From a virus: 64,000 bases of DNA. This document shows, in pieces, positions 33,129 through 60,153 of the stretch (the first letter of the stretch is position 1; each line of letters begins with the position of its first letter). Made by a program: the position numbers and the translations under genes. The notes beneath the pieces are model-generated. The model did not search any database, had not been told where the DNA came from, and saw only the letters and a program-made list of their open reading frames with translations. The stretch covers positions 1-64,000 of the IMG/VR virus record IMGVR_UViG_3300027763_000034; one strand, given 5' to 3'.

Positions 33129-34232
33129 CTACTTTTCTTCTAGTGATTTTACTCTTGCTGTAAGTTCTTGTACCGCTTTAATTAATGGAGAAATAAATTC
33201 TTCGTATCTTAATGCTTGTTGTCCTTCTGCATCATTCACATCAGAAATTACCCAGCCGCCGAAGTCAGCAATATTGACTTCATCTAAGACAGACTTTACC
33301 TCTTGTGCAATTAATCCGTAATGTGTTCTATCTCCACCAATTTTATTATATTTAACTGGGTTTAATTTATTAATAAAATTTAATCCAAGGTCAGATGTCA
33401 ATATATTTTCTTTTGTTCTTTCATCTGATATAACAGTTGCTGCTGAGTTTAAATATATGTTTTTCCATCCTCTAGTTACGTTATCTGTTCCAGAGTTAAT
33501 TGGACCAAGCAAACCTAAAGTAAATGTATTTGTTGATAGTGGATACCAGGCAGAGTTGACTCCAGTTGTAGATGTTGCTGTTGTTTGTAGCGCAATTCTT
33601 GTTGCAATTGGATCAATAACAGCATTTGATCCTGCTGCGCCAGTTGCGCCAGTTGCACCAGTTGCGCCAGTATCTCCACGAGGAATTGTAAAATTTAAAA
33701 TAACATTGCTAGATGTTCCAGTATTTGTAACAATAGCGTTTGTTCCTGCTGCACCTGTAGTTACTGGGCTAGCAATAGTAATTGTTGCTGCTGCATCACC
33801 TTTTGGACCAGTTGCTCCAGTTGCTCCAGTTGCTCCAGTTTCTCCAGTTGGTAAAACTAAATTTAAAACTTGAGATGGAGATGTGCCAGTAATTGTTGCA
33901 GAAGCTAGTGCGCCAGATACAACTGTTCCAATTGTTAAAACATTTGATGGACCAGGGCCACCAATTACTCCATCTTGACCTTTTGGAATATTAAATGTTA
34001 AAGATTGTGATGGAGATGTTCCGCTAATAGTTACCGAAGCATTTTGACCAGCATTTATTGTATTTGTTGAAGCAATGGTTAAAACGTTTGAAGGGCCTGT
34101 TGCTCCTTGGGGTCCAGGATGAGCAGCAATATATGTAGCAATATCATTACCTAAAATACCAAGATCTCTAGGTACATCGGGAGAATCCGAGTAACTTGGG
34201 AAGTGCCATCCATTAACGCCTGTAGTTGCCAT
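33129..34232 (-). CDS. Tail fibre with collagen-like repeats and S74 intramolecular chaperone
   Basis: A 367-residue fibre. Residues about 115-200 carry GXY triplets ([33 protein letters not shown]), a collagen-like triple helix. The C-terminus (SDERTKENILTSDLGL, then YGLIAQEVKSVL) is a peptidase S74 chaperone domain that trimerises the fibre and cleaves itself. It is immediately upstream in transcription of nothing but the LamG gene, and directly downstream of the oxygenase cluster. Confidence 0.83.
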   Translation of the reverse strand: MATTGVNGWHFPSYSDSPDVPRDLGILGNDIATYIAAHPGPQGATGPSNVLTIASTNTINAGQNASVTISGTSPSQSLTFNIPKGQDGVIGGPGPSNVLTIGTVVSGALASATITGTSPSQVLNLVLPTGETGATGATGATGPKGDAAATITIASPVTTGAAGTNAIVTNTGTSSNVILNFTIPRGDTGATGATGATGAAGSNAVIDPIATRIALQTTATSTTGVNSAWYPLSTNTFTLGLLGPINSGTDNVTRGWKNIYLNSAATVISDERTKENILTSDLGLNFINKLNPVKYNKIGGDRTHYGLIAQEVKSVLDEVNIADFGGWVISDVNDAEGQQALRYEEFISPLIKAVQELTARVKSLEEK

Positions 34233-34238
34233 TTTTTA

Positions 34239-34247
34239 ATTATACCA
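34239..34247 (-). promoter_or_regulatory. Extended -10 promoter candidate before the S74 fibre gene
   Basis: TGGTATAAT on the minus strand overlaps the stop codon of the oxygenase gene ahead. The -35 region is poor, so it would rely on the extended -10. Confidence 0.4.
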
Positions 34248-34911
34248 TTAAGCCTTTATACACAGAAAGGTGTGAGGTATATCTTTTGCCAGACAAAACT
34301 TCATTTACCTTATGAAGATACGGCTCTTGACTTGGAAATATTATTAGGCTGCCCTCTTGTGGCTTTATTGACAAGCCTTGGTTTGGAAACTCTATCTCGC
34401 CACCCTCATAGTCATCATTCAGATAAGCTATCATTGAGAATGCTAGTGTTGTATGTCCGTCATAGTTATCACAATGTGGCCCCATGCCAGAACCTGCTGC
34501 CCATTCTCTAATTGGAATTTCTCCCATTGGAAGTATATAATTTTTTCCGTCAATATTTCTTGACTTTAAATAATTATCAAGACACATTTCAAATGCCATT
34601 TTTAAACTATTACTTATGTAAAGAATTTTTTGATCTAGTCTGGAACCAGAATTATTTTCTTTTATGCTATTAGTTAAAACATTTTTATTTTTTCCGTATA
34701 CAACATTGACATCATCACTTGCTGTCCATGGGCTCCACTGTGTTATTTTTGAATAACTATCTTGGCTTTCATCGACCTCATTGATAAAATCAACTAGTTC
34801 TTTTGGATAGCTTAAAACATTTTTAAAATGCCATATGCCATCTTCTAAAGCATTTGGTATGAACATGTGATACATGTCATTTGGATTAAAATCTTTTTTA
34901 TCTTCTATCAT
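34240..34911 (-). CDS. 2-oxoglutarate/Fe(II)-dependent oxygenase 1 (prolyl-hydroxylase-like)
   Basis: A 223-residue double-stranded beta-helix enzyme with the full metal triad H146-x-D148 and H200, and R210 to bind 2-oxoglutarate; between them is the family strand YLNDDYEGGEIEF. Such enzymes hydroxylate a substrate with O2, producing succinate and CO2. The substrate is unknown; prolyl/lysyl-type protein hydroxylation is the nearest comparison. It is coupled by TAATG to the next oxygenase upstream and precedes the collagen-like fibre gene. Confidence 0.87.
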   Translation of the reverse strand: MIEDKKDFNPNDMYHMFIPNALEDGIWHFKNVLSYPKELVDFINEVDESQDSYSKITQWSPWTASDDVNVVYGKNKNVLTNSIKENNSGSRLDQKILYISNSLKMAFEMCLDNYLKSRNIDGKNYILPMGEIPIREWAAGSGMGPHCDNYDGHTTLAFSMIAYLNDDYEGGEIEFPNQGLSIKPQEGSLIIFPSQEPYLHKVNEVLSGKRYTSHLSVYKGLMV

Positions 34912-35669
34912 TAGATATTCTCTACTTCTGAGGCTGGGACTGGTGCTCCGTACGGAGTTAGTCTTAATCCTTTGTCACGGATTTCTTTCCATTCTTCTTG
35001 CTCGCCTTTTTGATGTGCTCTGACTTTAGCTAACTCGTCTGCCCATTCATCTCTAATTTCTTGAGGATAATCAGACTCTTCTCTATCGTCCCAAAAAGAT
35101 CCAAGCGTATATCTTGGCGCTCCTTTTACTACGGTAACCTCATGCATGTTTTTATGACCACCATGAAATATTAAAAATGACCCAGCTTTTGGAATAACTT
35201 CAAGTGGGGTTTTTCCATGTCTTGCATCAAACTTTAATGTTCCGCCTTCAAAATCATCATTTAAATATAAAAAACCAGCATATCTACTTCGTGTAAACGC
35301 ACCCATTTTTCCTTCTGAGTCGCTGTTGTCTGAGTGCTTTGGTGCAAAAGCTCCTGGAAGCCATCTTTGCACATGAAAGCTAATCTGAGACATGTCTTCG
35401 AAAGACTTATTTGCTACATCTGCAGCAGCCTGTCTAAATCTATTTTTAAGATCAGTAAACCATGTAGGGCTTAAATTAAATTCAGCAAGCACTGCTTCAC
35501 CATCAAATGGGTATCTGGCAGAGTATGACTCATAAAAAGATATTCCCTTCCAGTAGTCATCGTCAGTCTCAGCAAGTTTTTCTAGCAGCCCAATGACAGA
35601 TTTGCATTCTTCTTTTGATATAAAATCTTCATAGAGATCTATATCTTCTGTTAGTTTAGTAAGCTTCAT
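34911..35669 (-). CDS. 2-oxoglutarate/Fe(II)-dependent oxygenase 2
   Basis: A 252-residue oxygenase with H112-x-D114, H176 and R186; the strand FLYLNDDFEGGTLKF and the segment VIPKAGSFLIFHGGHKNMHE complete the fold. Its C-terminal 50 residues (from about 195) form a charged helical tail (EIRDEWADELAKVRAHQKGE) absent from the paralogues; it may dock to a partner. TAATG coupling on both sides puts it in the same translation unit as its two neighbours. Confidence 0.87.
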   Translation of the reverse strand: MKLTKLTEDIDLYEDFISKEECKSVIGLLEKLAETDDDYWKGISFYESYSARYPFDGEAVLAEFNLSPTWFTDLKNRFRQAAADVANKSFEDMSQISFHVQRWLPGAFAPKHSDNSDSEGKMGAFTRSRYAGFLYLNDDFEGGTLKFDARHGKTPLEVIPKAGSFLIFHGGHKNMHEVTVVKGAPRYTLGSFWDDREESDYPQEIRDEWADELAKVRAHQKGEQEEWKEIRDKGLRLTPYGAPVPASEVENI

Positions 35670-36490
35670 TACATACCCCCTGGCCCAGATTTATCTCCAG
35701 ATAGATCATCATATTTGGTCGGAACCCCATCCTGTAAGTATCTCATGTTTCTAGGATTGTCGTGCTTTAATCTTTCAAATTCTTTTTTCATCCAATTAGC
35801 GGCTCCTAATTTCTTTTGATTTTCGAGCCATTCTGGGTGTCCGTCGTAAGGGTACATAACAAAATTTCTTACAAAGAATTTTTCTCCATTATATATTGTT
35901 TTTACGCCATGAAAATATGGTTCATCTGATGGAAAGACAAGGATGTCTCCAGCCTGTGGTTTATGATTTACCCTATCCCCATTAACAAAAAATTCAATAT
36001 CTCCGCCGTCGTAATTATCATTTATATACATTGTGCAGGTTAATTGAAATTTAGATCCTGGCATGTCTCTTTCTGAAATAATAAAATCTGTGTGATATTG
36101 CATAGTCATTTTATTATCTAGGACATCAACTTGATCCGTATACTTTGAAAAAGAACATCCGCTAAAATGCCAATTAGGTTTTAATTCAATGCCGTGCCTA
36201 TTAATATAATCAAGCAATACTGCATCATAGGCGGACTGAATTTGATCCACAAAATCTTTTTCTTCTATAAACATTGGGTCGGACTTTTGAGTATCATCTA
36301 CTTCTAATGAATTTTTTGCTTGGGAATAGGTGCCAAAATGTGCCCAAGGGTCCCAAGTCTTTAAAAGGTACTTGCCTTCAGATGTCTGCTCTGATTTTTT
36401 CATTGTCTCATACAGGGCCTGCGGATCTTTCAAAACATTTCTGTACACATCCACTTTTGGATATAGCTCTACGTATTCTAAATTTGTCAT
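35669..36490 (-). CDS. 2-oxoglutarate/Fe(II)-dependent oxygenase 3
   Basis: A 273-residue oxygenase. ATG 36490 (MTNLEYVELYPKVDV) has CAGGAGAAAG before it and overlaps the upstream stop (ATGA), so it is preferred over the open frame to 36526. The triad is H133-x-D135 and H194. The usual 2-oxoglutarate arginine position is K204 (GEKFFVRNF), with R208 nearby, so co-substrate binding may differ. The strand TMYINDNYDGGDIEF is intact. The C-terminus is polar and probably disordered. Confidence 0.85.
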   Translation of the reverse strand: MTNLEYVELYPKVDVYRNVLKDPQALYETMKKSEQTSEGKYLLKTWDPWAHFGTYSQAKNSLEVDDTQKSDPMFIEEKDFVDQIQSAYDAVLLDYINRHGIELKPNWHFSGCSFSKYTDQVDVLDNKMTMQYHTDFIISERDMPGSKFQLTCTMYINDNYDGGDIEFFVNGDRVNHKPQAGDILVFPSDEPYFHGVKTIYNGEKFFVRNFVMYPYDGHPEWLENQKKLGAANWMKKEFERLKHDNPRNMRYLQDGVPTKYDDLSGDKSGPGGM

Positions 36491-37164
36491 GGCTGTCTTT
36501 CTCCTGTGTGTTTCATTATCGTCCAAAAAAATGGCGAAGTAAATCTATTTCCTGCTGTTACTGGTCTTACCCCGTGTGTGTAGTGCATGTCTCCTGGGAA
36601 GAAATATGCTGCGCCTGCTTTTGGCTTAAATTCAATTCCGTGCTGTGGGAAGTATAGCTCTCCGCCTTCATAGTCATCATTAAAATAAAATAGTCCTGCT
36701 AAGTCATACCATGGAAAATCATTTGGTCTTCCCTTTTCTATTCCAGTGTGAAACTCTTTGTCTGCGTGTGGTTCTTGTCTTGCCCCAACTGGCCATCTAA
36801 CAATTGCTGGGCCTGTCTCTTGAGCATCAACAGAAAAAAATTTATCCACTTCAATTTTAAGTCTTGCTATCATTGAGTTAATTAATTCTAATATTGTTGG
36901 GTCAGACTCCATTAAAGAGTTGTGAGTGCAAACCCTATCTTTCCATATATTTGCATCATACAAAACTAATCCGTCTTCATCAACATGAGTTTCGGTTTGA
37001 TCCCAAACTTTATTGTTTAAAGCAAAACTTATAAGCCTTTGCCTTTCATCTTCAGTCAAAAAATTTTCTAGCTCTATAATATTATCTGAGGATGAGCCAA
37101 AGAAACCTGAAGGCGTTATTGACTTCGGTGCATATAGCTGTATGTCTTTATTTGCAATTTTCAT
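36487..37164 (-). CDS. 2-oxoglutarate/Fe(II)-dependent oxygenase 4
   Basis: A 225-residue oxygenase with H133-x-D135 (EPHADKEFHTG), the strand FYFNDDYEGGELYF, H197 (YTHGVRPV) and R207. It is complete and predicted active. A 44-base gap separates it from the next gene upstream, so it may have its own ribosome loading (CAGAAAGAGAACTA before ATG). Confidence 0.86.
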   Translation of the reverse strand: MKIANKDIQLYAPKSITPSGFFGSSSDNIIELENFLTEDERQRLISFALNNKVWDQTETHVDEDGLVLYDANIWKDRVCTHNSLMESDPTILELINSMIARLKIEVDKFFSVDAQETGPAIVRWPVGARQEPHADKEFHTGIEKGRPNDFPWYDLAGLFYFNDDYEGGELYFPQHGIEFKPKAGAAYFFPGDMHYTHGVRPVTAGNRFTSPFFWTIMKHTGERQP

Positions 37165-37208
37165 TAGTTCTCTTTCTGTTAATACTACAATATAATTTTA
37201 CCATGCTA

Positions 37209-37913
37209 TTAATCTTTATTATCAATGACTTTTAATCTTATTGCTTTTACTTGGTGCTTCCCTAAAGATACTCCAAGGTGGTCTGTAGCATTACGGTAAA
37301 AATTAGTCCATTTCCCAACCGCATTTGATTCCGACCCAGCTTTGCTATATTCTTTAGAATCAAATGTTCTTTCTGGCATTTTTGAAGAGTCAAAAAACTC
37401 TATTTCGGAATCCTGCAAAGCTTCAAGGTTTATTGGCATTATTGAAAATATGGGCGTGTTAGCTTTTATTGTTATTTCAACATTTGGCCTAGTTACTCGG
37501 ATCGCACAAGATAAATCTCCACTATAAAAAGAAGAACTCATTATTGTTGTAAATGGCTCATACCCGTCTACAAAATTATTAGGGACTGGCATAGTGAGGA
37601 GGCTGTGGTTTTCATCTGTTTTAAATGTTATGCCAGTGTTAAAACTTACCGTAGCATTTGATCTTTCGGCATAAGCATATTTATCTCCAGATAATATTTT
37701 TACGTGATCTGGTGTGGAATCAGATATTCCGTCCCATATAAAAGTTATATCTTCTGGGAATGAGATAGACCAGCCCATTTGATTTGGTAATCCAACTGGA
37801 AAACATTTATATGCGTGAGCTTCCCAAGTTTCATCCATCCAATCTCTTTTTACTGATAAGGGGAGGACTGTGGCTGAAATATCTTTTGCTCTATAGGCTT
37901 TGAGTTTTACCAT
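37209..37913 (-). CDS. Beta-rich protein in the oxygenase cluster, unknown (DUF6065-like)
   Basis: A 234-residue protein beginning MVKLKAYRAKDISATVLPLS. The block RDWMDETWEAHAYKCFPVG and GWSISFPEDITFIWDGI are highly distinctive; I associate them with a domain of unknown function, DUF6065, from phage and bacterial genomes (memory, unverified). No HxD motif is present, so it is not a further oxygenase. Lying between two oxygenases and overlapping one by 23 bases, it may process or bind the same substrate. Confidence 0.72.
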   Translation of the reverse strand: MVKLKAYRAKDISATVLPLSVKRDWMDETWEAHAYKCFPVGLPNQMGWSISFPEDITFIWDGISDSTPDHVKILSGDKYAYAERSNATVSFNTGITFKTDENHSLLTMPVPNNFVDGYEPFTTIMSSSFYSGDLSCAIRVTRPNVEITIKANTPIFSIMPINLEALQDSEIEFFDSSKMPERTFDSKEYSKAGSESNAVGKWTNFYRNATDHLGVSLGKHQVKAIRLKVIDNKD

Positions 37914-38565
37914 CGTTTAATCTTTTTTCTACAAGTGCACGATACTCATCATTATGAGTGTTATCGTTATAATCTAGCATTGTAACTATAGAATATTTTT
38001 TGCCTTCTTCTACTGGCATTGCAACATGAGAATAGATATATGTGGACGGGAATATGTATAAGTCACCAGCTTTTGGCTTAATTTTTAAGTCTAATTTTGG
38101 GAACCATAGCTCTCCGCCAGTGTAATCATCATTTGGATACGCTACCAGAGACACCGTTGCTGTATAAGAAAACCCGTGGTCGGCATGCTCTTGAAAATGT
38201 TGTCCTGGACCATAAGAAATAAAATTCATTACTTCCCAAAAATCCATTCTTACGCTATGAAATGAACAATAGTCTTCTGCTGCTGGCCCCTGTGTATCTT
38301 TGGCATCTTGCCATATATCATTTATTCGTCTATCAAAATCATTTCTTATTGTTGGCACTGGGCCTATCTTTACATCTTGGCAATCTCTATAGCTTGGCCT
38401 TGTTTCATCATAGCCAACTGTTGCGCCTCTCCAGTTGTACTGCCCATTGCTTTCATTAACAACAGAGACAAGCCTTTCCATTAAATTTAGTTCTGGCTTA
38501 ACTACGTCTCTATATACCCATAACCCAGGAAATAGGATTTCTTTGCTTGACCAAGTTTGATTCAT
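37891..38565 (-). CDS. 2-oxoglutarate/Fe(II)-dependent oxygenase 5
   Basis: A 224-residue oxygenase with H127-x-D129 (QEHADHG), the strand VAYPNDDYTGGELWF and H180 (YSHVAMPV). As in oxygenase 3, the co-substrate arginine position is a lysine (K190 in GKKYSIV). Ribosome site AGAAAGAGAAAA precedes ATG. It starts 13 bases after the aspartyl-hydroxylase-like gene. Confidence 0.85.
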   Translation of the reverse strand: MNQTWSSKEILFPGLWVYRDVVKPELNLMERLVSVVNESNGQYNWRGATVGYDETRPSYRDCQDVKIGPVPTIRNDFDRRINDIWQDAKDTQGPAAEDYCSFHSVRMDFWEVMNFISYGPGQHFQEHADHGFSYTATVSLVAYPNDDYTGGELWFPKLDLKIKPKAGDLYIFPSTYIYSHVAMPVEEGKKYSIVTMLDYNDNTHNDEYRALVEKRLNDGKTQSL

Positions 38566-38578
38566 TTTTCTCTTTCTC

Positions 38579-39157
38579 TCATATATAGTTTATCATATCA
38601 TCTGGTAATATGTCAATAATTAAATGCACTCTATCAAAATCAGTTGGGTTAGAAACGGAGTGTGGCATTTGATTATTAATTTCATACCATCCGCCCTCTT
38701 CCATATGTATTGTATTGTCCATTACAGTAAATGTTATTAAATCTTTTGTTATTATGGGTACATGAACTCTTCTAGAATAGTGAAGCAGGGCTCCACCATC
38801 AACATGCTTTGGTATATAAGAATTAGAATTTAATTTAACAAATTCACACCTTATTATTTTGCCAGAATAGTATGACTCTAAATCAATAAAAATTTTTTTA
38901 AGCTCTTGATCTGATAGACTATTTTTAAGAAGATTTACATAATTGGTTTCAACTGGGTCGCCAACAATCCAATCGTAATCTGTTTCACAAATTCTAAACA
39001 TCTGTGTGCTTTTGTGAGTATACCCTTTTTCTTGCCTGCTTTGATCAATCAGCCATTCATTTGAAAAATTAGAAATTTCATCTTTAATATGATTTATTTC
39101 AAAATGACCTAGGTGAAGTATTGACCACTCAGTATTCTTTTTTAATCTTTTGTACAT
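38579..39157 (-). CDS. Aspartyl/asparaginyl beta-hydroxylase-like oxygenase
   Basis: A 192-residue protein with H118-x-D120 in IPKHVDGGALLHYSRRVHVP, H166 in NNQMPHSVSN and R176. The RRVHVPI strand and MPHSVSNPTD turn are those of the aspartyl/asparaginyl beta-hydroxylase family, distinct from the prolyl-hydroxylase-like paralogues nearby. It would hydroxylate Asp/Asn side chains or a related small substrate. It overlaps the sulfotransferase gene by 29 bases, implying coupled expression. Confidence 0.83.
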   Translation of the reverse strand: MYKRLKKNTEWSILHLGHFEINHIKDEISNFSNEWLIDQSRQEKGYTHKSTQMFRICETDYDWIVGDPVETNYVNLLKNSLSDQELKKIFIDLESYYSGKIIRCEFVKLNSNSYIPKHVDGGALLHYSRRVHVPIITKDLITFTVMDNTIHMEEGGWYEINNQMPHSVSNPTDFDRVHLIIDILPDDMINYI

Positions 39158-39836
39158 ATTCGTATACCTCCATGTCCAATAAATTAATTTCTTCTATTCT
39201 ATTTATATGTCTTTTATCAAATTTAATTCCTATATCATAAGAGGAATTTGCTTTGTCGGAATGTTTAAATGTTGAAAATCCAAATTGTTTTAATAAGCTT
39301 TTATTTAAATCTATTTTAAATAAATCTAGTTCTTCTAGCGTATAAGCTTTCATTTTTTCAAGACTTGAAATTACATTTTTTATATCTAATTTATATCCTT
39401 CTAAATACCAACCGCTGCTAACTGTATTTTGAAATTGTAATATATCCTGATTAAATTTTTCTATATTTAATTTACCAGTTAAAAATTTTGACTGCAGGTT
39501 GGATTGCATTTCGCATTCTTCCCCATAAAGCCATCTATCTAATTTTTCTTCAGCTTCTTTTCCCGCTCTTATTGGTCCTGTTGTATATTTAAAATAGCTT
39601 ATAAATCTTTCTACTGGGTCTCTAACTATTGTAAAAATTTCTGGACTGTCCATATAATCTAAAGGCATTAAGCCAAAATGACCACCAACAAACCTACTTT
39701 TTTTTATTTTTTCTACATCTATTTTATTCCTATTGGATATACAATGCTCTACCCCATTTGATATCAAATGGGGTATTACATTATTCTTTATGTATATACC
39801 AGATGTTCTTGGAATATGCAGATGGTATATTGACAC
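39129..39836 (-). CDS. Sulfotransferase family protein 1
   Basis: A 235-residue protein. HIPRTSG at 7-13 is the 5'-phosphosulfate-binding loop and IVRDPVERFISYF at 70-82 the 3'-phosphate-binding segment of PAPS-dependent sulfotransferases. It would transfer sulfate to a hydroxyl or amine. The start is GTG 39836, overlapping the TAG stop of the Hint-domain gene upstream, so the two are translationally coupled. PAPS would have to come from the host, as no PAPS synthesis gene is in the window. Confidence 0.82.
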   Translation of the reverse strand: MSIYHLHIPRTSGIYIKNNVIPHLISNGVEHCISNRNKIDVEKIKKSRFVGGHFGLMPLDYMDSPEIFTIVRDPVERFISYFKYTTGPIRAGKEAEEKLDRWLYGEECEMQSNLQSKFLTGKLNIEKFNQDILQFQNTVSSGWYLEGYKLDIKNVISSLEKMKAYTLEELDLFKIDLNKSLLKQFGFSTFKHSDKANSSYDIGIKFDKRHINRIEEINLLDMEVYEYVQKIKKEY

Positions 39837-41128
39837 TAAAAAGCTTTACGGTTGTGTACTACTAGATCTCCCGCAATTAAAATATCATTTGGAGAAGCAT
39901 CAAATTCATAAACGGTTCTTTCTTCATTTATAATTTTTGTTGATTCTACTACTACCTCTTCAAAAATATTTTCATTATTTTTTACAAATATTGAATCTCC
40001 TGGTTCAAGAATTCCTGTTGTGCTAAAGAAATATGTGTCATTTTTCTTTGCAAGAATTGTTTGTTCTAGTGAGAATCTCTTAGAAGAGTCATCATTAATA
40101 ATCATAGTTGCATCTTTTATAGAAGGCTTTACGGCTCTAATTTCAGTTTTTACTAGATGTATATTATTAATTGAATCTGTAGACCATGTATAAGGATCGA
40201 TTTCAAATTCATCAAGCAATCCATCCCATGTTGCTGACCATACTTGGTCACCTACTTGAATTTCTTTTGCTTTTTTAAATTCTACTGTGTCATTTGGACC
40301 CACTGTCATTACAAGAGTGTCTTGATCAATGCAATAGAACCCTGGTGGGGCAAAGAACCCTGGTGGGGCAAAGAACCCTGGTGGGGCAAAGAACCCTGGT
40401 GGGGCAAAGAACCCTGGTGGGGCAAAGAATGATGGTGGTGCGAAGAACCCTGGTGGGGCAAAGAACCCTGGTGGGGCGAAGAATGATGGTGGTGCGAAGA
40501 ACCCTGGTGGGGCAAAGAAGCTTGGCGGGAAGAACGGTGCCAATGTTGTAACAGAATTTGATGATGCTGAATATGAAGAGTCTCCGTTACCATTTGTAGC
40601 AAGTACTTGATATGACTGTGCAGTGTTTGCTGTTTCTGGTACAGTGTGGCTTACTCCAGCTATTGAATATATTGGGCCATCGCTTGACTTAAGCTTGTAT
40701 CCAGTTATTGCTTTTCCTCCATCAGCTGGTGCAGACCAGGTAACATAGTCTTGGTTAATCTGTGCTGTAGCTGTTGGTGCTCCTGGGGTAGAAGGAACGG
40801 TTGTTGCGGTAACTGAGGCTGAAGCGGTTGATGGCTCGGAATCTCCAAATGTATTTTTTGCAACAACTGTATAGGTGTAAGGTGTATTAGAAAGAAGACC
40901 AGTGACTGTAATAGGAGAAGAAGTTCCTGTTCCAGTTCGACCTCCTGGGCTAGCTGTTACAACATACTCTGTTGCTGCGTATGGCCCATCTGGTGTAAAC
41001 GATACTGTTGCTGCTCCATCATTAAATGGACGGTTGGTTCCAACATCTGTTGCGCTTACATTGATTGGCTTAAATGGCATCAGGAAGTCATTCGAGCCCT
41101 GGCTCATTCTACCTACTTGTTTTGACAT
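39836..41128 (-). CDS. Fibronectin III / FFAPP-repeat protein with C-terminal Hint domain
   Basis: A 430-residue protein. Residues about 20-195 are two fibronectin III-like domains (PINVSATDVGTNRPFNDGAA; PGAPTATAQINQDYVTWSAP). Residues about 199-263 are FFAPPG/FFAPPS hexapeptide repeats. C266 to N426 is a Hint (intein-like) domain: it opens CIDQDTLVMT, has EIQVGDQV, and ends LVVHN followed by only RKAF. The block-B histidine expected in a T-x-x-H motif appears as Q in FSLEQTIL. It may auto-process its C-terminus or cross-link; a virion adhesin is likely. Confidence 0.8.
   Translation of the reverse strand: MSKQVGRMSQGSNDFLMPFKPINVSATDVGTNRPFNDGAATVSFTPDGPYAATEYVVTASPGGRTGTGTSSPITVTGLLSNTPYTYTVVAKNTFGDSEPSTASASVTATTVPSTPGAPTATAQINQDYVTWSAPADGGKAITGYKLKSSDGPIYSIAGVSHTVPETANTAQSYQVLATNGNGDSSYSASSNSVTTLAPFFPPSFFAPPGFFAPPSFFAPPGFFAPPGFFAPPSFFAPPGFFAPPGFFAPPGFFAPPGFFAPPGFYCIDQDTLVMTVGPNDTVEFKKAKEIQVGDQVWSATWDGLLDEFEIDPYTWSTDSINNIHLVKTEIRAVKPSIKDATMIINDDSSKRFSLEQTILAKKNDTYFFSTTGILEPGDSIFVKNNENIFEEVVVESTKIINEERTVYEFDASPNDILIAGDLVVHNRKAF
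40340..40519. repeat. Tandem 18-bp repeats, about ten copies (FFAPP[GS])
   Basis: Ten nearly identical 18-bp units encode FFAPPG or FFAPPS on the minus strand, with a degenerate FFPPS copy at the 5' side. Two units differ by the same GATGATGG variant, implying duplication of multi-unit blocks. Copy number could change by slippage or recombination. Confidence 0.92.
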
Positions 41129-59553: not shown

Positions 59554-60153
59554 TTAGTTGACTGCAATTTTATATTTGTATTCCCAATATCTATCATAGG
59601 TCTGCTTGACAATGTCGCTTGATTCAACCGCAGCTTTTAATATTGGTTTTTCTGGTGTTCCTATATTTCTATTTCTTCTAGCAAGTGGATAATTTACATC
59701 AGAAAGGTTTGCAACTAACTTTTCATCTACCCATTTATCAGTTACATCAAAATCTACAATAGGTATATTAAACTTATCAGAAATCTTTTGTACTAGATCC
59801 ATTGGATTATTTCTCATATCTTCATACACATAAATTAATACGTTGTCCCTTTCAAAATCATCCATGAAAACGTTGTATAGCGTATTATAATATTTTATTT
59901 TTAGTTTTAATGTATCTGAATTAGATATTTCAAATTCCCGCAAATCTGGAGAATCTATGCCTTGAAAATGTCTTTCTAAGCCTGAGACTATTGCGTAATA
60001 TGGATCTCTAAGTATGTATACCTGATTTCCGCCTTCTGTTAGCAGATGCGGCTGATGTGTTGTTTGAAACCATTTTCCAAAAGCTTTTTGTAAAATAGTG
60101 CTACAATAAGTTGTACCTGATCCTGGGGCTGAGTTTATAATTAAGTCATCCAT
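59554..60153 (-). CDS. Sulfotransferase-like P-loop protein 3
   Basis: A 199-residue protein beginning MDDLIINSAPGSGTTYCSTI. SAPGSGTT (8-15) is the phosphosulfate loop and YILRDPYYAIVSGLERHF (46-63) the 3'-phosphate segment. It overlaps the fused gene upstream by 8 bases. The loop resembles that in the fused gene (SPPGCGNTF), so the two may share substrate or form a pair. Substrate unknown. Confidence 0.75.
   Translation of the reverse strand: MDDLIINSAPGSGTTYCSTILQKAFGKWFQTTHQPHLLTEGGNQVYILRDPYYAIVSGLERHFQGIDSPDLREFEISNSDTLKLKIKYYNTLYNVFMDDFERDNVLIYVYEDMRNNPMDLVQKISDKFNIPIVDFDVTDKWVDEKLVANLSDVNYPLARRNRNIGTPEKPILKAAVESSDIVKQTYDRYWEYKYKIAVN

What the first reader, a model, noticed from the sequence alone, without database searches (positions are those of the whole stretch)
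34240..39836. Candidate phage hydroxylation-sulfation module inside the fibre operon
Seen: seven adjacent co-directional genes, largely overlapping or near-touching, encode five prolyl-hydroxylase-like oxygenases with complete HxD...H triads, one aspartyl-hydroxylase-like enzyme and a DUF6065-like protein, followed by a sulfotransferase coupled to a virion adhesin gene. Known: such oxygenases create hydroxyl groups and PAPS-dependent sulfotransferases sulfate hydroxyls. Inference: they act in series on virion fibres or on host-surface glycans, as a tailoring system. I know of phages with single oxygenases, but not of this combination and density.
Basis: partly seen in the sequence, partly recalled or inferred. 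Interest (0 to 1): 0.9.

Follow-up and report, generated by a model that had tools for sequence, protein, structure and literature searches.

The report
Phage proline-hydroxylase cassette beside repeat adhesin
Many uncultured phages carry a fixed set of four to six protein-hydroxylating enzymes directly beside one gene for a surface protein packed with Phe-Phe-Ala-Pro-Pro-Gly repeats, which suggests that they chemically finish their own adhesin and gives a concrete substrate to test for a large enzyme family in phages that has none.

Summary
Eight co-directional genes (34240-39836, minus strand) encode five 2OG-Fe(II) oxygenases with intact iron sites, one Asp/Asn-hydroxylase-family oxygenase, a DUF6065 protein and a sulfotransferase, coupled to an adhesin-like gene. 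The interpretation needs splitting. The core is a hydroxylation cassette: P4H1-5 plus DUF6065 lie at the same site in portal-sharing relatives and are tied to one gene whose product carries (FF[A/S]PPx)n repeats. Finding those repeats by DNA pattern alone leads to a P4H just downstream in 54 of 60 cases, against 38 of 398 control genes. That gene holds 11 of the 17 Pro-Pro pairs counted in the window's proteins; the collagen-like fibres have no Y-position proline. The repeat adhesin is therefore the best substrate candidate. Sulfation is an optional add-on: sulfotransferase, Asp-hydroxylase and the adhesin's Hint domain travel as one block. It is credible because the fold matches PAP-bound heparan sulfate sulfotransferases, and sulfotransferase-bearing phages also carry an APS-kinase-like gene (12 of 13, versus 0 of 10). 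A serial hydroxylate-then-sulfate pathway is not shown. Multiple oxygenases per phage are already known; the dedicated cassette and paired repeat substrate appear new. No chemistry has been demonstrated.

The parts
39836..41128 (-). Adhesin-like repeat gene (REP): two fn3 domains, FF[A/S]PP[G/S] repeat tract (about 40344-40540), C-terminal Hint/intein-like domain (about 39839-40335; starts CIDQDT, ends VVHN-RKAF); proposed substrate
   Evidence: Pfam fn3 and weak Intein_splicing; sequence; 11 of the 17 PP pairs counted in the window's proteins; repeat/P4H adjacency
39129..39836 (-). Sulfotransferase (PF03567; HS2ST/HS6ST-like fold), optional member
   Evidence: alignment A2 with HIPRT[S/A]G and RxPxxRxxSxF motifs; PDB 5t03 E 7e-8; model pLDDT 90.6, top match 4ndz with PAP
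38579..39157 (-). Asp_Arg_Hydrox-family 2OG oxygenase (PF05118), optional member, travels with the sulfotransferase
   Evidence: invariant HxD, distal H and R; nearest PDB L-proline cis-4-hydroxylase 4p7w E 7.5e-7
37891..38565 (-). P4H5, 2OG-Fe(II) oxygenase (PF13640)
   Evidence: triad invariant in 116 orthologues; nearest PDB bacterial P4H 3itq E 4e-5
37209..37913 (-). DUF6065 protein (PF19541); predicted dUTPase-like (beta-clip) fold
   Evidence: model pLDDT 91; Foldseek 3c2t E 6e-5; no sequence-profile support for dUTPase homology
36487..37164 (-). P4H4, 2OG-Fe(II) oxygenase (the most conserved of the five)
   Evidence: one clade in the tree
35669..36492 (-). P4H3, 2OG-Fe(II) oxygenase (start re-assigned from the TTG at 36526 to the ATG near 36490)
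   Evidence: one clade
34911..35669 (-). P4H2, 2OG-Fe(II) oxygenase
   Evidence: one clade
34240..34911 (-). P4H1, 2OG-Fe(II) oxygenase
33129..34232 (-). Collagen-like fibre with S74 chaperone; neighbour of the cassette in many relatives, less likely substrate
   Evidence: Pfam PF13884; 0 of 12 G-X-Y triplets have Pro in Y; not detected in several loci that keep the cassette

Best explanation
The locus is an adhesin-maturation cassette. Shown by comparison: five anciently separate, catalytically intact prolyl-hydroxylase-type oxygenases and DUF6065 are inherited as a block beside a gene for an fn3 protein with FF[A/S]PPx repeats. Inferred: during assembly these enzymes hydroxylate the repeat prolines (perhaps different ring positions, residues or repeat contexts per enzyme), giving a stiff hydroxyproline-rich stalk, while DUF6065 binds or presents the proline-rich chain. 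In a subset of phages a Hint-domain version of the adhesin comes with its own sulfotransferase and Asp-hydroxylase-family oxygenase, which add a second modification to that version of the protein, with PAPS possibly supplied by a phage APS-kinase-like enzyme.
For: Repeats found by DNA pattern without reference to oxygenases have a P4H within 2.6 kb downstream in 54/60 (strict) or 67/73 cases, versus 38/398 control ORFs. In 12 large records 13/16 repeat clusters have a P4H within 2.3 kb, random mean 2.2, never reached in 20,000 draws. The cassette is at the same site next to the portal in relatives with enough sequence. The link recurs in phages without a matching portal (G014, G015), and loci of that type have P4Hs that are sisters of P4H4 and P4H5. 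Within the window the repeat gene holds 11 of 17 counted PP pairs, while the collagen-like fibres have no Y-position Pro. Triads invariant; dN/dS well below 1. Closest solved relatives of P4H5 are prolyl 4-hydroxylases, with chlorovirus P4H 5c5t at the edge of significance. Sulfation branch: HS sulfotransferase fold with PAP, APS-kinase-like gene in 12/13 ST-bearing and 0/10 ST-lacking records, Hint-ST-AspH block exchange.
Against: No enzyme activity, hydroxyproline or sulfate has been measured. That the repeat protein is in the virion is inferred from its position among fibre genes; it has no tail-family hit. Adjacency may partly reflect shared ancestry of related phages. Five enzymes for one short repeat is more than the simplest model needs. 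Some long repeat proteins have no adjacent P4H. In chloroviruses hydroxyproline was not found in virions despite an active P4H (PMC7019647).
Confidence: 0.62

Rival explanations
1. The oxygenases hydroxylate the collagen-like S74 fibre and other collagen-like fibres (classical collagen maturation), and the repeat adhesin is only a neighbour.
For: A collagen-like fibre directly follows P4H1 in most relatives; bacterial P4Hs are the nearest solved relatives of P4H5.
Against: 0 of 12 and 0 of 23 G-X-Y triplets in the two collagen-like fibres have Pro in the Y position that collagen P4H uses. In several relatives no collagen-like gene was detected while the cassette and the repeat gene remain (L249, L253, L254, L257, L277, L278). 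In G014/G015-type loci the repeat gene lies next to P4H and DUF6065 in a different gene order.
Confidence: 0.13
2. One reading: a serial pathway in which hydroxyls made by the oxygenases are then sulfated by the sulfotransferase, on fibres or host glycans.
For: Sulfotransferase and oxygenases are in one operon; the fold is that of O-sulfotransferases; an APS-kinase-like gene co-occurs.
Against: The oxygenase cassette usually occurs without the sulfotransferase; the sulfotransferase tracks the HN-type Hint domain (21/21 with, 0/71 without) and is swapped with Hint and AspH while the P4Hs stay. No glycan-active gene was identified inside the cassette.
Confidence: 0.15
3. The oxygenases serve infection metabolism or nucleic-acid repair (2OG draw-down, DNA repair), as proposed for cyanophage 2OG oxygenases, and their position next to fibre genes is incidental.
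For: Such roles are the published proposals for cyanophage homologues (PMC9146016, PMC3037559); two further oxygenases in this genome lie next to terminase- and RecA-like genes (106.0-106.6 and 110.7-111.5 kb).
Against: These five are fixed next to one Pro-rich repeat gene across divergent phages, and the nearest solved relatives of P4H5 are prolyl 4-hydroxylases.
Confidence: 0.1

Closest known systems
Cyanophage 2OG-Fe(II) oxygenases (PHROG 61; e.g. nine copies in S-SZBM1, PMC9146016; Phold survey PMC12774648)
   Same: Same superfamily and PHROG; several copies per phage; conserved iron-binding residues.
   Different: There they are scattered, with proposed roles in DNA repair or 2OG metabolism; here five form an ordered operon tied to one repeat-protein gene and DUF6065. 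P4H4 is only about 25-31% identical to the nearest GenBank phage hits.
Chlorovirus PBCV-1 prolyl 4-hydroxylase (PDB 5c5t; reviewed in PMC7019647, citing Eriksson et al. 1999)
   Same: Virus-encoded small P4H that hydroxylates Pro-containing peptides sequence-specifically.
   Different: Eukaryotic virus, no comparable cassette described in the review; hydroxyproline not detected in virions (PMC7019647).
Bacterial prolyl 4-hydroxylase (PDB 3itq, 5hv0)
   Same: Closest solved relatives of P4H5 by sequence.
   Different: Cellular enzymes; substrate repeat differs (own knowledge).
Heparan sulfate 2-O-/6-O-sulfotransferases (PDB 4ndz, 5t03)
   Same: Best fold and profile matches of the phage sulfotransferase; PAPS-site motifs mostly conserved.
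   Different: About 17-19% identity; Arg replaces the P-loop Lys in nearly all homologues; smaller protein (235 aa); substrate unknown.
Hydroxyproline-rich glycoproteins / polyproline-II rods of algae and plants (PMC11015965)
   Same: The proposed end product (a Hyp-rich extended stalk on an extracellular protein) would work like them.
   Different: Works-like comparison only; repeat FFxPPx differs and no glycosylation was tested.

Membership tests
2OG-Fe(II) oxygenase, P4H-like (PF13640) | Profile match above curated cut-off | tested here: met
   Five genes, 37.5-48.6 bits vs 27
2OG-Fe(II) oxygenase, P4H-like (PF13640) | HxD...H iron triad plus basic 2OG residue | tested here: met
   Invariant triad in all de-replicated orthologues; R/K conserved
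2OG-Fe(II) oxygenase, P4H-like (PF13640) | Peptidyl-proline hydroxylation | not testable with these tools
   Substrate inferred from gene neighbourhood only
PAPS-dependent sulfotransferase (PF03567) | Profile match above cut-off and sulfotransferase fold | tested here: met
   27 bits vs 22; Foldseek 4ndz E 2e-5, probability 1.00; 5t03 by profile E 7e-8
PAPS-dependent sulfotransferase (PF03567) | 5'-PSB P-loop (PKTG-type) and 3'-PB (RxPxxRxxS) motifs | tested here: inconclusive
   3'-PB R72/S80 invariant; P-loop is HIPRT[S/A]G with Arg for Lys except in L098; pocket not modelled with PAPS
Asp_Arg_Hydrox (PF05118) | Profile match and HxD...H...R residues | tested here: met
   43.3 bits vs 22.6; invariant H118, D120, H166, R176
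Hint / intein-like (BIL) domain | N-terminal Cys, block-B T-x-x-H, C-terminal HN | tested here: inconclusive
   Cys and HN present; block-B His is Gln in the window and most ST-linked copies; Pfam match below cut-off
dUTPase (for DUF6065) | Sequence-profile homology to dUTPase | tested here: not met
   hhalign probability near 0; only fold similarity
Collagen P4H substrate (S74 fibre) | Pro in Y position of G-X-Y | tested here: not met
   0 of 12 triplets
APS kinase (G000 96019-96780) | PF01583 match over the whole domain | tested here: inconclusive
   57 bits vs 21 cut-off, but only positions 4-91 of 152; C-terminus resembles a nucleotidyltransferase

The most novel reading that the evidence does not exclude
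A complete phage-encoded production line for a hydroxyproline-rich, sulfated tail adhesin: dedicated oxygenases and DUF6065 convert an FFxPP repeat into a hydroxylated rod, and in some lineages a phage APS-kinase-like enzyme plus sulfotransferase sulfate its tip, making it a bacteriophage counterpart of extensin- or HRGP-type surface proteins.
Probability: 0.25. Interest if true: 0.92.

Novelty: new variant of a known kind. Interest (0 to 1): 0.78.

Why it matters
2OG-Fe(II) oxygenases are common accessory genes of aquatic phages, yet their substrates are unknown. Here a whole set is locked to one gene with a simple repeat that can be made as a synthetic peptide, so the question becomes directly testable. 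If true, phages chemically mature their own adhesins, which would bear on host recognition, virion stability and the evolution of post-translational modification outside eukaryotes. It would also give DUF6065 a first functional context.

Tried and rejected
Cultured phages: no DNA match to the cassette and no tblastn match for DUF6065 or the sulfotransferase in 50,697 records; the adhesin only weakly matches an intein tail protein of phage NCTB that lacks the FFxPP tract. Collagen as substrate: rejected as main reading on Y-position counts. DUF6065 as an active dUTPase: fold similarity only, profile comparison negative. DUF6065 in bacteria: next to a polyproline autotransporter in Sinorhizobium and a collagen-like outer-membrane protein in Ochrobactrum, but no such neighbour in Niveispirillum or in one genome drawn from the Bacteroidota search, so suggestive only. 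DUF6065 scan of GTDB genomes: one hit, a short contig in a Chitinophagaceae MAG that carries the same repeat/P4H/DUF6065 set and is probably phage. Literature: no paper names DUF6065; none found on phage hydroxyproline adhesins or a phage fibre sulfotransferase, judged from titles and abstracts. Only open-licence papers are held, so absence is weak evidence.
Full report
What is there. The window is part of a 116,155-bp uncultured virus record. Its portal is up to 57% identical to that of about 130-kb Streptomyces phages and its G+C is about 37%, which suggests a low-GC actinobacterial host (inference). On the minus strand, in transcription order, lie: an adhesin-like gene (39836-41128), a sulfotransferase (39129-39836), an Asp_Arg_Hydrox oxygenase (38579-39157), P4H5 (37891-38565), DUF6065 (37209-37913), P4H4 (36487-37164), P4H3 (35669 to about 36490), P4H2 (34911-35669), P4H1 (34240-34911) and a collagen-like S74 fibre (33129-34232). 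Gene ends overlap or nearly touch, which suggests translational coupling.

The enzymes look functional. The five P4Hs share only 23-48% identity with one another in BLAST matches, yet the iron triad is kept in every de-replicated orthologue of each (42 to 116 sequences), and the 2OG-binding basic residue is conserved as R or K. Pairwise dN/dS against relatives is 0.02-0.47 for the P4Hs, and below 0.3 for DUF6065 and the sulfotransferase; the Asp-hydroxylase is 0.17-0.21 at non-trivial divergence. In a maximum-likelihood tree P4H2, P4H3 and P4H4 each form one clade across phages, and all five positions together need 5 label changes where 4 is the minimum. These are old, separately maintained enzymes, not recent tandem copies.

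The core is a hydroxylation cassette tied to a repeat protein. Searching viral contigs with DUF6065 gave 80 loci, most with the same gene order: repeat adhesin, (sulfotransferase, Asp-hydroxylase), P4H5, DUF6065, P4H4, P4H3, P4H2, P4H1, often followed by the S74 fibre. The adhesins found there carry repeats of the type FF[A/S]PPx or FFPP; over 138 distinct tracts the hexad is FF-[A 727, S 533, G 115]-PP-[G 645, S 177, A 121 ...]. To avoid anchoring on the enzymes, viral contigs were scanned with a DNA pattern for the repeat alone. A P4H lay within 2.6 kb downstream on the same strand in 67 of 73 de-replicated repeat genes (54 of 60 when at least 2.6 kb of downstream sequence existed), against 38 of 398 other ORFs of at least 200 aa around the portal. 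The exceptions are long (519-807 aa) repeat proteins; in two large records with a distant repeat cluster (G013, G016) a second repeat cluster does adjoin the cassette. In 12 large records 13 of 16 repeat clusters have a P4H within 2.3 kb, random mean 2.2 and maximum 9 in 20,000 draws. Loci fetched by the portal gene alone show the cassette at the same place whenever enough upstream sequence is held, with L235 as a reduced case. Two records without a matching portal (105 kb and 205 kb) carry a short repeat protein beside P4Hs and DUF6065; in loci of that type (L136, L161) the P4Hs group with P4H4 and P4H5.

Why the repeat protein is the best substrate candidate. Of 17 Pro-Pro pairs in the 49 window proteins examined, 11 lie in this one gene, directly beside the enzymes. 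The two collagen-like fibres of the window have no proline in the Y position of any of their 12 and 23 G-X-Y triplets. The nearest solved relatives of P4H5 are prolyl 4-hydroxylases. This is inference from context; no reaction has been observed. That the repeat protein is a virion adhesin rests on its fn3 domains and its place among fibre genes; it has no tail-family match.

The sulfation branch. The sulfotransferase profile matches heparan sulfate 6-O-sulfotransferase 3 (5t03, E 7e-8), and its confident model (pLDDT 90.6) matches heparan sulfate 2-O-sulfotransferase with PAP best (4ndz, E 2e-5). The 3'-PB Arg and Ser are invariant, while the P-loop has Arg instead of Lys in nearly all homologues. 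The protein occurs only where the adhesin ends in an HN-type Hint domain: 21 of 21 with, 0 of 71 without. In L004/L005/L096 the stretch 38.7-40.3 kb (Hint, sulfotransferase, Asp-hydroxylase) falls to 56-72% nucleotide identity, while the P4H/DUF6065 side is mostly 80-99% and the repeat tract at 40.6 kb is 94%. These three therefore move as a block, separate from the P4Hs, which argues against one serial pathway and for a second modification specific to the Hint-bearing adhesin. The phage also encodes an APS-kinase-like protein at 96019-96780 of the record, next to an alkanesulfonate-monooxygenase-like gene and a second, divergent sulfotransferase-like gene. Across 23 records the APS-kinase-like gene is present in 12 of 13 with a sulfotransferase of this profile and in 0 of 10 without (Fisher p about 1e-5, 3e-5 after removing near-duplicates). 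Shared ancestry is not corrected for, and the kinase match covers only the N-terminal part of the domain.

DUF6065. The model (pLDDT 91) resembles trimeric dUTPases (3c2t, E 6e-5), but profile-profile comparison finds no sequence relationship. In Sinorhizobium plasmids the gene lies 10 bp behind an autotransporter with a long polyproline tract, and in Ochrobactrum behind an outer-membrane protein with a collagen-like tail, with no PF13640 gene on the Sinorhizobium replicon tested. Two other bacterial contexts show no such neighbour. A role in handling proline-rich repeat chains is a lead, not a result.

Comparison with the known. Several 2OG oxygenases per phage are known (nine in S-SZBM1, PMC9146016; present in 14 of 16 cyanophages in PMC3037559) and were proposed to act in DNA repair or 2OG metabolism. 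A chlorovirus P4H hydroxylates Pro-containing peptides sequence-specifically, but no hydroxyproline was found in its virions (PMC7019647). Viral P4H genes have been linked in discussion to collagen in tail fibres (PMC9301287). I found no description of a multi-oxygenase cassette with a dedicated repeat substrate, nor any GenBank phage with DUF6065 or this sulfotransferase, within the limits of the held libraries. The finding is a new variant of a known kind: virus-encoded prolyl hydroxylation, here organised as a conserved adhesin-maturation cassette.

Verdict. Observation confirmed; interpretation partly supported. The hydroxylation cassette with its repeat partner is solid as a genomic fact, moderately supported as a mechanism (0.62). 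Sulfation is plausible but optional, and its substrate is open.

Noticed in passing
G000 78073-81557 (L107): A second oxygenase cluster outside the window: five 2OG-Fe(II) oxygenase-like genes interrupted by a glutathione-peroxidase-like gene (79736-80245).
   Followed up: partly
G000 109703-111537 (L108): A second DUF6065 gene close to a P4H3-like oxygenase, beside a RecA-like gene; the DUF6065/oxygenase pairing recurs within the same genome.
   Followed up: partly
G000 95095-97523 (L316): APS-kinase-like protein with a nucleotidyltransferase-like C-terminus, an alkanesulfonate-monooxygenase-like luciferase-family protein and a divergent sulfotransferase-like gene: a possible phage sulfur module.
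   Followed up: partly
window 59554-60153 (-): A further small protein with a Sulfotransfer_1 match (E 5e-7).
   Followed up: no
window 39836-40335 and relatives: The Hint domain has lost the block-B His in most sulfotransferase-linked copies, and other copies lost the terminal HN; some adhesins lack the domain altogether.
   Followed up: partly
L307, L308, L312: Bacterial DUF6065 genes directly behind polyproline or collagen-like surface-protein genes in Sinorhizobium and Ochrobactrum.
   Followed up: partly
L235 (G005): A portal-sharing relative in which the cassette is reduced to two detected oxygenases plus a distant Asp-hydroxylase-family gene; it has no FFxPP pattern match and only a weak DUF6065 match.
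   Followed up: no
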